A stretch of 33,501 nt of DNA, from the NCBI GenBank assembly GCA_946619045.1, contig CAMOLV010000003.1, positions 1 through 33,501 on the forward strand, read 5' to 3'. The notes beneath the pieces were generated by a model, which saw nothing but the letters and a program-made list of their open reading frames with translations, was not told the origin of the DNA and did not search any database. This document shows positions 2,090-9,315 of the stretch, piece by piece; the stretch's first letter is position 1, and each line of letters begins with the position of its first letter. The translations under genes were made by a program, and so were the position numbers. This DNA comes from an uncultured Coriobacteriales bacterium. Its GTDB lineage: Bacteria > Actinomycetota > Coriobacteriia > Coriobacteriales > Atopobiaceae.

Positions 2090-2233
2090 CGCAGGGCCGC
2101 GTCCCCGTCCATTGCTGTGCGCCGCAGGGCTTCGCCGTTCCATAGCCGTGCCCTTCGCAGCCGAGCCAAGCCGTCGCAGTGCTCATTATCGCCACGCCGA
2201 GCCATCGCGAAGCACCGCTCTGCGAAGCCCTCG
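2090..2233. repeat. Degenerate short-word repetitive patch (second, smaller patch)
   Basis: Same word vocabulary as 2867-3440: CCATTGCTGTGC, GCCAAGCCGT, CCCTTCGCAG, GCGAAGC; no convincing CDS. Confidence 0.6.
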
Positions 2234-2866
2234 CTAGTCGATGTTGCTGAACACGACCTTGCCCTTCTCGTCGGTCACGCGGCAGGCGAAGCGTCCCTTG
2301 CCGCTGTTGCGCCACTGTCCGATGCCGCGCATGAAGCCGTACTGCAGCCACTCCACGATCAGCGGCACGAGGTCGGCCTTGAGCGTGCTCACCTTGAAGT
2401 CGCACCACGTCCCCTCGGGCAGCGCCTCGGAGTTGGCGAGCGCGACGCGCTCCCCCTGCGGGCCGCTCGCCCTGAGCGGGCGCTGGCAGCTCCCCTCGTC
2501 CATCCCCTCGGGGATGTGCAGCACGATGCGCCTCGGCGTCGGGAACACCAGCCCGTCGATTTCCTTCTTGTAGGCGCGGAGCTTGGCCGACTTGCAGTTG
2601 TCCCCCTTGCGCAGCATCCCGCAGGCGTCCTTGAAGAAGCCCTTGACCTGGTAGTCCCAGAGCATCGGCCTGCCGTCATCGGTGCGCGGGAAGCGCGTTA
2701 TGGCCCGCTCCTCCACCTCGTCGGTGCCGAGCGCCTCGACCTCCTCCTTGAGCGAGGGCGCGTCGGGTGCCTTGCTCGCGATGAAGCGCTCGTGAATCTT
2801 GGGGTCGCTCGACGCGGTGCCCAGAACCTCCTCGAGGAATACCAGATGCACGTCCAGTGTGATCAT
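2234..2866 (-). CDS. Conserved phage protein of the recombination region; possible RAMP-like C-terminus
   Basis: 210 aa, MITLDVHLVFLEEVLGTASSDPKIHERFIASKAPD...DYQVKGFFKDACGMLRK...CQRPLRASGPQGERVALANSE...GIGQWRNSGKGRFACRV; clean ORF. Confidence 0.85.
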   Translation of the reverse strand: MITLDVHLVFLEEVLGTASSDPKIHERFIASKAPDAPSLKEEVEALGTDEVEERAITRFPRTDDGRPMLWDYQVKGFFKDACGMLRKGDNCKSAKLRAYKKEIDGLVFPTPRRIVLHIPEGMDEGSCQRPLRASGPQGERVALANSEALPEGTWCDFKVSTLKADLVPLIVEWLQYGFMRGIGQWRNSGKGRFACRVTDEKGKVVFSNID

Positions 2867-3587
2867 TGTCCCTACTCACTTTCGTCGTTGTTGTTCCTTC
2901 TCTTTGCGGGTCATTGCTGTGCCAAGCCGTAGCCGCTCCATGCCCTTCGGAGCTACGCCGCTGCGTCGATTCGCTGAGCTGTGCCGCCGCATTGCGGTCT
3001 ATGCCATCGCCGGACTCGGCAGCGCCTTGCCGCCGCCTTGCCTCCGCACTGCCATGCCATCGATGCTTCGCCGCTGCTCAATGCTTGGCCATTCCACGCC
3101 TCGCCTTGGCATGTCGTATCGCTGCGGTGCTTTGCCGCTGCCCTTCGGTTCCCTGCCTGTCCATCGCCACGCAATTCAGGGCTAATGCAAGGCAGTGCCT
3201 AGCGGAGCTATGCCATTGCATTGCTGCGCTTTGCCAAGCCGTGGCCATTCTGAGCTTCGCTCTGCCTTGGCGATTCGGTGCGGGGCATTGCCGTGGCCGG
3301 GCTATGCTTGGCTCTGCCGCTGCGCGTCCATTGCCATGCCGTCGCGTCGCCGAGATTAGCTGCGCCACGCCCTCGCCTTGCCCCGCGTCGCCGAGCGCAT
3401 CTATGCCCCAGCGGTGCGTTTCTGCGCTGCGCCACTGCGGCGGGTGGCCCCTCCGTAGTGCCGTCTGCCTTCACGGTGCATCCCCTTCTGCTGCGCGGCC
3501 CAGGAAGATCCAACCCGCCGCGCCGGAACCTTTCGCTCGCACGCACCCAGACGGCACCATGGAAGGGCCATCTCCGCCTCCATGGAC
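2867..3587. repeat. About 0.6-0.7 kb of non-coding degenerate short-word repeats between bet and the 2234-2866 gene
   Basis: Repeated minus-strand words AGCGGCRAAGC, GGCTTGGCA, GCAATGG, GGCAAGGC, ATGGCA. Densest at about 2905-3440. No plausible protein on either strand. Confidence 0.75.
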
Positions 3588-4418
3588 CTAGAAGTCCACG
3601 TCCTGCTCGTAGAGGTCAGGCTCGACCGCCTCCTCGACGGCCACCTGCTCAGGCTCGGCCTCGGCTGGCGCTATCGTCCGCGCCCAGCCCTCGACGCTCG
3701 CCATGCCGTTGGACTGGTACAGCCCCCAGATGTACTTGCGGGCCTCGGCGCGGTCGATGCCGACGCTCGCGGCCAGCTCGCACACCTCGGCCATGCGGCC
3801 CTTCTCCTCGGGCGTCGGCTGCGTCCTCTCGGGCCTCGGCTTCTCGACCTCGGCCTGCACCTCGGTCGCCTGCGCCATCTCCTCCGAGCTGTACATCCCT
3901 TGGAACTCCTGCGGGAAGGCCCCGCGGAGGGCGTGCATCTCGGCGACCTTGACGATCATCGTCCCGGGCATCTTGGCCCAGTTGCTCTTGCCCGTGTTGT
4001 ACTCGCTGAGCGGGACCTCGCTGTAGTAGGGCTTGCGGCCCTTGCGGTACGCCCGCGCCCAGCCGCCGAGCAGCTGCTCGCCGAGCGTCTTGTAGTACGC
4101 CTCGCCAGCGCGGTGGTCGATGGCCCCCTGCGCGGTGAGCACGACCACGCCGACCTCGACGCCATCGTACTCGGGGTTGGAGTCCGCCCTCTTCTGGATG
4201 GCGGCGCGGCTCGTGATGATGCTCGCGGGGCCGCTGCCGTACTTGACGAGGTATGCCTCCTTCGTCCATGGGTTGAGCCGCTGCGTCGCGCAGAGCGCGA
4301 GGAAGAGCTGGATCTCCTGGTCGGTCGCGTTCGGGCAGAAAGTCTGCCGCACGTCCTGCGGCGTTATCTGGATTGACGCGCCCGCGTCATCCTGGAACTT
4401 GACTATCTCGTATGCCAT
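3588..4418 (-). CDS. bet: Phage recombination protein Bet (RecT/Redbeta-type ssDNA annealing protein)
   Basis: 276 aa; ITPQDVRQTFCPNATDQEIQLFLALCATQRLNPWTKEAYLVKYGSGPASIITSRAAIQKRADSNPEYDGVEVG is characteristic of the Bet family. Confidence 0.93.
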   Translation of the reverse strand: MAYEIVKFQDDAGASIQITPQDVRQTFCPNATDQEIQLFLALCATQRLNPWTKEAYLVKYGSGPASIITSRAAIQKRADSNPEYDGVEVGVVVLTAQGAIDHRAGEAYYKTLGEQLLGGWARAYRKGRKPYYSEVPLSEYNTGKSNWAKMPGTMIVKVAEMHALRGAFPQEFQGMYSSEEMAQATEVQAEVEKPRPERTQPTPEEKGRMAEVCELAASVGIDRAEARKYIWGLYQSNGMASVEGWARTIAPAEAEPEQVAVEEAVEPDLYEQDVDF

Positions 4419-6955: not shown

Positions 6956-6983
6956 CTTATAGGAAGGCAATGTTGCCTTGCAA
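6956..6983 (-). promoter_or_regulatory. Candidate leftward promoter (-35 TTGCAA, 16-bp spacer, -10 TATAAG)
   Basis: Read on minus strand; the -35 falls within the first iteron-like repeat. Confidence 0.35.
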
Positions 6984-7076
6984 CTGTGCCGTTTTTGCCT
7001 TGCAACTAGTCCGTTTTTGCCTTGCAACTAATTGTTGAAAACTCGACAGTTGCATGTTGTTTTTGCCTTGCAACTA
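6971..7076. repeat. Iteron-like direct repeats, core GCCTTGCAACT, 4 copies
   Basis: Core starts at 6975, 6997, 7019 and 7065; three copies carry TTTTTGCCTTGCAACTA; spacing 22, 22 and 46 bp. Confidence 0.85.
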
Positions 7077-7431: not shown

Positions 7432-8388
7432 CTATGCGATTCCCAGCAGCTTCTCGGCTGCGGCCACCACCTCGGCCAGCTCGGGCAGCATGCGGTACTG
7501 CCAGATGAAGGCCGCAAGCTCGCCCTTGGCCTTCTCAAGCTCGCCCTTGCCCTGTGCTTCCTCTAGCTGCTTGCGCAGTCGGTCGTTCTCGTCGCTGAAC
7601 ATGCGGTTTCCGCTTTCCAGCTCGCGGGTTCTGCGCTTTAGGTCTGCGTAGTCATCTGGCACGACCTCCCGCACGACCTCCCGCTCCACCACCTGTTGCT
7701 TCTGGGCGAGGTCATACAGCTCATCGTTCTGCTTCTCGAGCGCAGCCACCTCGTCACGCATGTCGCTCAGCTTGCCCCTCAGCTCAGCTGCGTCGTGCTC
7801 GGCCTCGTCGCGCTCCTGCTCGGCCTGCTTCTGCGCGGCTTTAATGCGCTGGAACGCCTTGTTGGTGCTCAGCCTGCCCTCGTCCCAGTCGGCGAAGTCA
7901 GCGGGATCGAGCAGTTCTGAATTGTCGGCCACATAGAGCGTCTTGCGCGCTTGCTCGCCAGAGATGCCGAACTGTTCGGCGGCTTTGTCGCGGGCGCGAC
8001 CACTCTCACCTGTGGCAAATGTTTGCCGGAGGTCTGTACGTACTCCGCTCCGCTCCTTGGCTTTCTCACTCTCAATAGCCATCTGCCTACGGATGCCCTC
8101 TGCCAGCTCGGAGCCGGTGAAGTTGCGGCGAACCGTGTTCTCGGACAGCTCGATTTCAATGTCCTGAGCCTCATCCTCGGATTCGACCATACGGACGTCC
8201 ACCTGCGACCATCCGAGCAGTTTGCAAGCCCTCAGTCGGCGCTCGCCAGCCAGCAGCACGTGCCTATTGTTGATGGTGATGGGATTGAGCAGACCGTTCT
8301 TCTTGATGTTGTCGGCCAGCTCGTCAATGTCGCCGAAGTCCTTGCGGATTCGGTCGCCAACGATGATCTTGTCAATGTCTATAAGCAT
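7432..8388 (-). CDS. ParB N-terminal-domain (ParB/Srx fold) protein with long coiled coil
   Basis: 318 aa; MLIDIDKIIVGDRIRKDFGDIDELADNIKKNGLLNPITINNRHVLLAGERRLRACKLLGW. Confidence 0.88.
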   Translation of the reverse strand: MLIDIDKIIVGDRIRKDFGDIDELADNIKKNGLLNPITINNRHVLLAGERRLRACKLLGWSQVDVRMVESEDEAQDIEIELSENTVRRNFTGSELAEGIRRQMAIESEKAKERSGVRTDLRQTFATGESGRARDKAAEQFGISGEQARKTLYVADNSELLDPADFADWDEGRLSTNKAFQRIKAAQKQAEQERDEAEHDAAELRGKLSDMRDEVAALEKQNDELYDLAQKQQVVEREVVREVVPDDYADLKRRTRELESGNRMFSDENDRLRKQLEEAQGKGELEKAKGELAAFIWQYRMLPELAEVVAAAEKLLGIA

Positions 8389-8400
8389 GTCGCATGCTCC

Positions 8401-9315
8401 TTACTCGTAGCCGAGAAAGATTTCGGGGAATCTCTCAGGGTTCTTCCCGCCAGGAGTAAACGTGAGGCGCTTCATCTCGTCTCCGCGCATATAGGCGTTC
8501 CACGTCTTGATGATGTAAGCCGCAAGAACGCTGTGCTTGAAGACGCCCCTGCCGTGGCTTCTCATGTCGGCTGCGTTCTCAACAAATTTTTGCTGCAAGA
8601 GCCTAACGGGCATGCAGGCTGCGCTCTTTCCTGCAAGCTGCGCCACAAATTCGTTGAAGTTCTCGTCGCCAGACTTGCGGAACTCGTCAAACAGAGCGCC
8701 GAGAAGTTGAATAGGCACGCCCTTGTAACGATTCGTGACGAGCCGTATGGGCTGGATCAACGGCTCTATGCGGTCATCGTGCTGTTCATGGATGAACCTG
8801 CGTTGCGCCTTGATGGAGCGCTTCGTAGCATTGTTATCAAAGAGGCTTGTCGTGATGCCCATGTCGGCTTTGCGCATGAGAATCTTTCCGATCGTGGAGA
8901 CGTCGGTGTAGTTCTTGTAACCGTCCATCTTGATATAGTCGGCAAGATGACGCCTTGTGCCGCTGTCGATAGTGTCTTGGGTATCGCCTTGGACACCGCG
9001 AACAATTACGGCATCGATGGTTTTCCCTGTTTTGACGCAGGATGTAAGCCTGTGCTGCCCATCAAGGAGGTTCCCGTTGATGTCGAAGATGATGCTCTCG
9101 CCATTGAGCGACCACTCGTCGCCGCTCATGGACTCTTCGAGCGTGCTAAGCGGGACGCTCTTGATCTTGCGGTTCTTGACATTGGTAGCCAGCATCTTCT
9201 TCGCAGTCTCAGGTGTAATGCGTTCGACGCTCACGCTGACTTGCGGGTATTCATGCTCCACGTTCTCACCGTACACATACGGGAACGACATTTGCAGTAC
9301 ACTGTTGTTAGTCAT
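8401..9315 (-). CDS. DGQHR-motif / ParB-fold phage protein
   Basis: 304 aa; WSLNGESIIFDINGNLLDGQHRLTSCVKTGKTIDAVIVRGV. Confidence 0.8.
   Translation of the reverse strand: MTNNSVLQMSFPYVYGENVEHEYPQVSVSVERITPETAKKMLATNVKNRKIKSVPLSTLEESMSGDEWSLNGESIIFDINGNLLDGQHRLTSCVKTGKTIDAVIVRGVQGDTQDTIDSGTRRHLADYIKMDGYKNYTDVSTIGKILMRKADMGITTSLFDNNATKRSIKAQRRFIHEQHDDRIEPLIQPIRLVTNRYKGVPIQLLGALFDEFRKSGDENFNEFVAQLAGKSAACMPVRLLQQKFVENAADMRSHGRGVFKHSVLAAYIIKTWNAYMRGDEMKRLTFTPGGKNPERFPEIFLGYE

What the first reader, a model, noticed from the sequence alone, without database searches (positions are those of the whole stretch)
2867..3587. Roughly 0.7 kb non-coding degenerate short-word repeat tract between bet and the next early gene
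On the minus strand the tract is built from recurring short words, roughly 10-12 nt apart by eye: AGCGGCAAAGCACCG, AGCGGCGAAGCATCG, AGCGGCGTAGCTCCG, AGCGGCAGAGCCAAG, GGCTTGGCAAAGCGCAGCAATG, GGCTTGGCACAGCAATG, and ATGGCATGGCA. It is neither a tandem array nor a CRISPR. The words are shuffled and diverged, as if produced by repeated slippage, templated shuffling or recombination. Devoting about 2% of a compact 33 kb phage genome to it, directly downstream of a single-strand annealing protein, suggests a function or an active generating process. Options are a Bet substrate or recombination hotspot, a structured RNA, a decoy, or part of a system with the adjacent 2234-2866 gene. I have an uncertain impression of similar tracts near recombinase genes in other gut phages; this was not searched.
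Basis: partly seen in the sequence, partly recalled or inferred. Interest (0 to 1): 0.85.

Follow-up and report, generated by a model that had tools for sequence, protein, structure and literature searches.

The report
Phage RNA-guide array beside Vipr gene
The odd repeat tract is very probably a set of guide-RNA units (a variable three-base word after every fixed two-base spacer) used by the neighbouring CRISPR-like (Cas7/RAMP) phage protein, which makes it a variant of the phage "VIPR" weapon systems first described in a 2026 preprint.

Summary
The tract is real and non-random, but it is not shuffled debris. On the minus strand it is a degenerate tandem array of 5-nt words, G-H-N-N-N (H = not G, mostly C), with an extra G every 5-7 words, giving units of 26, 31 or 36 nt. 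It spans 2886-3438, and a second array lies at 2109-2233. The arrays flank the 2234-2866 gene, a Cas7-like RAMP protein: its predicted fold matches type VII Cas7 and Csm3, and it carries a RAMP-like glycine-rich loop.

The pairing is reciprocal. 105 of 109 related genes have such an array, always sense-strand. Searching for the array alone finds the gene in 57 of 65 loci, against 0 of 14 chance matches. RecT/Bet is incidental. The G is strongly constrained; the triplets drift.

This matches VIPR (PMC13142463): a phage RAMP plus guide RNAs of GGY/NN pentamers that silences competing phages. This family differs: NGH/NN words, inserted G, no conserved accessory gene. Its triplets, with GH removed, carry natural-DNA neighbour statistics, suggesting all three bases are target-derived (3 DNA nt per 5 RNA nt) instead of the published 1-nt skip. 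No targets were found. Structured-RNA and Bet-substrate readings are not supported.

The parts
2886..3438 (-). Array 1: degenerate tandem array of G-H-N-N-N pentamers with an extra G every ~5 words (26-nt units), upstream of the RAMP gene; putative vrRNA-type guide units
   Evidence: lag-5 and lag-26 autocorrelation; array HMM trained on 107 related tracts; segmentation posterior; decoded words
2109..2233 (-). Array 2: shorter array of the same grammar, immediately downstream of the RAMP gene (segment 2109-2265, trimmed to the gene's stop)
   Evidence: lag-5/10/26 autocorrelation; segmentation posterior; decoded words
2234..2866 (-). 210-aa Cas7-like RAMP protein (Vipr-like), with RAMP-type G-loop RGxGQWRNSGKGRF
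   Evidence: alignment of 27 relatives; AlphaFold model pLDDT 82; Foldseek PDB top hits type VII Cas7 and Csm3, E 2e-8 to 5e-8; BFVD top hit a RAMP protein; PADLOC Cas7_IIId/Csf2/Csm4 weak hits
3588..4418 (-). RecT/Bet single-strand annealing protein: neighbour only, not part of the system
   Evidence: PF03837 E 7e-37; within 1.5 kb of the RAMP gene in 1 of 84 loci

Best explanation
The tract encodes guide RNA for a phage VIPR-type system. Step 1 (shown): a Cas7-like RAMP gene is flanked by sense-strand arrays of 5-nt words G-H-N-N-N grouped into 26/31/36-nt units ending in GC(A/G)A(A/C/T)+G. Step 2 (inferred from homology and the preprint): the array is transcribed, and RAMP subunits polymerise on each RNA, one per pentamer, gripping the fixed G-H. 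Step 3 (inferred): the variable bases are displayed to base-pair with dsDNA of competing phages or prophages, silencing transcription without cutting. Step 4 (supported here by statistics only): in this family all three variable bases of each word are target-derived and read contiguously, 3 DNA nt per 5 RNA nt, giving about 12-18 nt of target information per unit, in place of the NN plus 1-nt-skip rule measured for type II VIPR.
For: Gene-first search: 105 of 109 distinct relatives have an adjacent 5-nt-periodic tract. Array-first search: 57 of 65 loci with a real tract carry the gene and 0 of 14 chance matches do; most of the remaining 8 are truncated at a contig or stored-data end, and one of them (L221) holds a gene fragment. 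Orientation is sense in 107 of 107. RAMP fold. Weak but specific similarity to SUSP1 Vipr (PDB 36pp): hhalign E 0.0008 (0.0017 in the script run, against at least 0.046 for 16 unrelated families); phrog_4652, the SUSP1 Vipr family, is hit by 2 of 27 members at best E 0.0097. Vibrio-phage relatives of SUSP1 Vipr also have GCNNN words. G changes at 2.5-4%, triplets at 12-19%, 4-fold sites at 21-23%. Decoded triplets: 12-mers occur in phage DNA above position-stratified word shuffles (829 vs 732+-22, z = 4.5; not for 4- or 5-nt spacing). The junction base pair across G-H follows natural adjacent-dinucleotide bias (projection z = 5.8, r = 0.71), and several other pairs peak at their decoded distance. 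Preprint: PMC13142463.
Against: No target was found: no 15-18-mer excess, and two decoded 21-mers had no hit in IMG/VR. Expression, RNA binding and silencing are untested. Sequence similarity to accepted Viprs is marginal. The published GGY/NN consensus and 1-nt skip are not reproduced. There is no conserved accessory (vap) gene (at most 7 of 84 loci) and no constant structured 3' tail was seen. Two of the predicted decoded-distance correlations, (3,2) at d=2 and (2,2) at d=3, are weak or absent. Codon-register tests gave no clear answer.
Confidence: 0.86

Rival explanations
1. The protein polymerises on the array RNA (G every 5 nt), but the triplets are not read. The RNP acts as a structural filament, RNA sponge or decoy, for example jamming host class 1 CRISPR complexes with a Cas7-like protein and pseudo-crRNA.
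For: Triplets drift at close to synonymous rates in several pairs while G is fixed; no targets were found.
Against: Decoded triplets keep natural neighbour statistics across the G-H spacer and match phage 12-mers above permutations only at 3-nt spacing. In some pairs the array is better conserved than its flanks (L102/L107/L113). Related Viprs are experimentally RNA-guided (PMC13142463).
Confidence: 0.1
2. Recombination hotspot or substrate for the neighbouring RecT/Bet annealing protein.
For: RecT is the next gene in this window; block insertions and deletions of units occur between close relatives.
Against: RecT is within 1.5 kb of the RAMP gene in 1 of 84 loci, and found anywhere in the fetched flanks of 12 of 132 loci, whereas the RAMP gene is adjacent to the array nearly always. 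The strand bias of 107 of 107 to the gene's sense strand points to RNA.
Confidence: 0.02
3. Degenerate DNA produced by slippage or templated shuffling with no function.
For: Two-copy repeats and whole-unit deletions occur; short low-complexity words.
Against: Same grammar and gene linkage in loci from MAGs of several bacterial phyla, constraint on G, ordered unit length and boundary word.
Confidence: 0.02

Closest known systems
VIPR systems (Viral Interference Programmable Repeat), PMC13142463 / bioRxiv 2026.04.26.720920; type II example Escherichia phage SUSP1, PDB 36pp
   Same: Small phage-encoded RAMP protein; flanking long non-coding tracts of tandem pentanucleotides alternating fixed and hypervariable positions; phages of many hosts; no CRISPR array or other cas genes.
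   Different: Words are N-G-H/NN instead of GGY/NN (first G free, Y often A); an extra G every 5-7 words makes 26/31/36-nt units in arrays of up to ~1 kb or more; no constant structured tail seen; no conserved vap gene. The main text implies that only one of the seven types (type I) lacks a vap, so this may be that type (inference; the supplement could not be read). Statistics favour contiguous three-base reading over the 1-nt skip.
Class 1 CRISPR RAMPs: type VII Cas7, Csm3 (III-A), Cas7 III-D, Csf2 (IV-A)
   Same: Predicted RRM-type RAMP fold and glycine-rich loop; guide RNA units that vary in fixed steps per subunit.
   Different: No repeat-spacer array, no Cas1/Cas2, no Cas10/Cas5/Cas6 partners seen among recurrent neighbours; 5-nt instead of 6-nt pitch, encoded in the DNA itself; the region aligned by eye with the catalytic Asp of Csm3 is not conserved.
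TIGR-Tas (PMC12045711)
   Same: Phage and bacterial RNA-guided system with a tandem array next to a single protein gene.
   Different: TIGR-Tas proteins carry a different RNA-binding domain, not a RAMP; different array architecture (abstract only; details from general knowledge).

Membership tests
VIPR | Small single RAMP protein (about 20 kDa) with RRM core and G-loop | tested here: met
   210 aa; Foldseek to type VII Cas7/Csm3 E 2e-8 to 5e-8; C-terminal RGLGQWRNSGKGRF conserved. Thumb not examined.
VIPR | Homology of the protein to an accepted Vipr (SUSP1, PDB 36pp) | tested here: inconclusive
   hhalign E 0.0008 vs at least 0.046 for 16 controls; phrog_4652 best E 0.0097 in 2 of 27: positive but weak.
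VIPR | Flanking non-coding tandem pentanucleotide tract alternating fixed and variable bases (GGY/NN or a related consensus) | tested here: met
   Related consensus N-G-H/NN, tract adjacent in 105 of 109 loci; strict GGY is not met (first G only ~23%).
VIPR | Fixed bases conserved, variable bases hypervariable | tested here: met
   G 2.5-4%, H 8-12%, N 12-19% substitutions vs 21-23% at 4-fold sites.
VIPR | Minimal locus, phage or provirus encoded | tested here: met
   80+ IMG/VR loci; no CRISPR genes among recurrent neighbours.
VIPR | Accessory vap gene (typical, not universal) | tested here: not met
   No neighbour family adjacent in more than 7 of 84 loci; no SUSP1 vap1 homologue.
VIPR | Invariable structured 3' tail (reported for the SUSP1 clade) | tested here: not met
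   Only a short recurring unit end GC(A/G)A(A/C/T)+G; array RNA no more folded than shuffles.
VIPR | vrRNA transcribed and bound by Vipr | not testable with these tools
   Needs small-RNA sequencing and pull-down; 107 of 107 sense orientation is only consistent with it.
VIPR | dsDNA recognition by NN with 1-nt skip | tested here: inconclusive
   No enrichment of NNx matches; signal instead for three contiguous bases; no target identified.
CRISPR-Cas class 1 | Repeat-spacer array with cas1/cas2 and multi-gene effector | tested here: not met
   No such neighbours among recurrent families; array grammar is pentameric.

The most novel reading that the evidence does not exclude
A large single-gene branch of VIPR, linked to phages of Clostridia, Coriobacteriia and other phyla, uses a different code: every 5-nt RNA word carries three contiguous target bases behind a fixed G-H, in short tandem guides (12-18 nt of target each) delimited by GCAAAG, with no skipped base.
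Probability: 0.4. Interest if true: 0.85.

Novelty: new variant of a known kind. Interest (0 to 1): 0.7.

Why it matters
RNA-guided systems that do not use a continuous guide were reported only in 2026 and may be ancestral to CRISPR. This family is abundant, has a single protein gene and a much longer array than the characterised type, and its arrays hold enough information to infer a reading rule from sequence alone. If the three-base rule holds, it is a second decoding rule for the same RAMP scaffold, and it makes the rule directly testable with a plasmid reporter in a laboratory strain.

Tried and rejected
Coding function of the tract: the antisense ORF is clearly found only in the near-identical phage. 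Structured RNA or Rfam family: none. Direct DNA similarity of the tract to phage genomes: only chance-level hits. Contiguous or gapped target matching in 1.6-1.9 Mb of phage DNA with 0-4 nt spacing: no 15-18-mer excess. Start-codon targeting (ATG-led units looked tempting): ATG not enriched over first-order expectation. Codon register by stop depletion: two of three frames depleted about equally, not decisive. Exact 21-mers of two decoded units in IMG/VR: no hits. Terminators after arrays: 6 of 60 downstream arrays, 0 of 34 upstream, 11 of 306 random, not informative. Conserved accessory gene: none.

Full report
WHAT IS THERE. On the minus strand the tract has lag-5 autocorrelation z of about 9 and lag-26 z of about 8 against dinucleotide shuffles, and 3430-3587 has none. 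A hidden Markov model trained on 107 related tracts learns one cyclic word: G (0.88), then C 0.61/A 0.22/T 0.14 (almost never G), then three variable bases, with an inserted G on about one word in six. The spacing between inserted Gs peaks at 5-7 words, so units are 26, 31 or 36 nt. The word before the inserted G is biased to GC-A/G-A-A/C/T. Segmentation gives array 1 at 2886-3438 and array 2 at 2109-2233; the printed segment 2109-2265 runs into the gene's 3' end. In this window most units have about 5 words, which explains the 26-nt lag.

THE PARTNER GENE. The gene between the two arrays (2234-2866) has no Pfam or PHROG hit on its own. Its family profile weakly hits type VII Cas7 and Csm4 (E 0.014), and PADLOC Cas7_IIId, Csf2 and Csm4 models. 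The AlphaFold model (pLDDT 82) matches type VII Cas7 and Csm3 chains at Foldseek E 2e-8 to 5e-8 with probability 1.00, and in BFVD a phage protein named RAMP superfamily. The C-terminal RGLGQWRNSGKGRF looks like the RAMP glycine-rich loop.

THE LINK. Gene-first: 105 of 109 distinct relatives from viral and genome contigs have an adjacent periodic tract. Of the four without, L082 shows a short array by eye and L156 is cut at the contig end. Array-first: two degenerate patterns that know nothing of the gene hit IMG/VR loci. 65 of these have a true periodic tract and 57 of those carry the gene; 14 lack a tract and none carries it. Most of the 8 exceptions are truncated, and one of them holds a gene fragment. 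All 107 tracts read on the gene's sense strand. RecT/Bet is within 1.5 kb in 1 of 84 loci, so the Bet idea falls. Folding is no better than shuffles (z 0.09).

EVOLUTION. Close pairs show whole-unit gains and losses; L029 and L030 differ by a clean 330-nt block. Over aligned words the G changes at 2.5-4%, H at 8-12% and the triplets at 12-19%, against 21-23% at 4-fold sites of the gene. Some arrays are nearly identical while most flanks differ by 4-9% (L102/L107/L113), which suggests selection or exchange of whole arrays.

WHAT IS KNOWN. After reaching the RNP-guide idea from these data, a literature search found PMC13142463. VIPR systems are phage RAMPs with vrRNAs of alternating GGY/NN pentamers. 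They bind dsDNA by NN with a one-base skip, silence transcription and mostly target competing phages. There are seven types, with 'GGY/NN motifs, or a related consensus'. The SUSP1 Vipr is solved (PDB 36pp). Comparison with the SUSP1 family: hhalign E 0.0008, against at least 0.046 for 16 unrelated neighbour families; phrog_4652, the SUSP1 family, is hit by 2 of 27 members at best E 0.0097. Vibrio and Listonella members of the SUSP1 family also show GCNNN-type words next to the gene.

HOW IT IS READ. In SUSP1 the word is GGY+NN. Here the first G position is free (A 38, C 15-16, G 23-24, T 22-23%), so each word has three variable bases. Removing G-H and joining the triplets gives strings whose 12-mers occur in phage DNA more often than word permutations stratified by unit position (829 vs 732+-22, z 4.5). 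Spacing by 4 or 5 nt does not do this. After removing near-duplicate arrays (160 arrays, 2,134 units), the pair formed by the third variable base of one word and the first of the next, three bases apart in the array, shows natural adjacent-dinucleotide bias (TA 499 vs 579, GT 282 vs 338, TG 428 vs 374; projection z 5.8, r 0.71). Other pairs peak at the distance they would have after decoding: (4,3) at 2; (3,3) and (4,4) at 3. Pairs (3,2) and (2,2) do not show it clearly. This favours three contiguous target-derived bases per word. It is a statistical inference and was exploratory (several pairs and distances were examined). No actual target was found, so the rule and the target remain unproven.

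VERDICT. The tract and gene form a VIPR-type RNA-guided system. Identity is well supported by anatomy, linkage and fold; direct homology to accepted Viprs is weak; mechanism is inferred. No accessory gene is conserved, which by elimination from the preprint's main text fits its type I, but the supplement was not readable here.

Noticed in passing
L168:2741-3000: Periodic array with no RAMP gene detected in the 12.5-kb locus, away from the locus ends: possible orphan array or lost gene.
   Followed up: partly
L099 and L100 (about 73-kb phages): Several separate arrays spread over about 6 kb around one RAMP gene, the largest set seen; the two phages are about 91% identical and the array regions align at 73-82%.
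   Followed up: partly
L029 vs L030, 4640-5320: Near-identical phages whose arrays differ by one clean 330-nt loss of whole units, suggesting recombination between units.
   Followed up: yes
L102, L107, L113 (array upstream of the gene): Array 98.6-98.9% identical while most flanks are 91-96%: array conserved or exchanged as a cassette.
   Followed up: partly
L089:3461-3920: A 5-nt-periodic signal that looks like a different, regular repeat (GCCAACCTGAGCGGA...), probably a coding repeat and not an array of this kind.
   Followed up: no
window 6973-7030: 22-nt unit tandem repeat, 2.6 copies (TTGCCTTGCAACTAGTCCGTTT), of unknown role.
   Followed up: no
window 7432-8388 and 8401-9315: ParB-like partition/nuclease protein next to a protein of PHROG 5931 (unknown function).
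   Followed up: no
PHROG 4652: This 'unknown function' phage family is the SUSP1 Vipr family (all 7 SUSP1-family members tested hit it), so many annotated phages carry unrecognised Viprs.
   Followed up: partly
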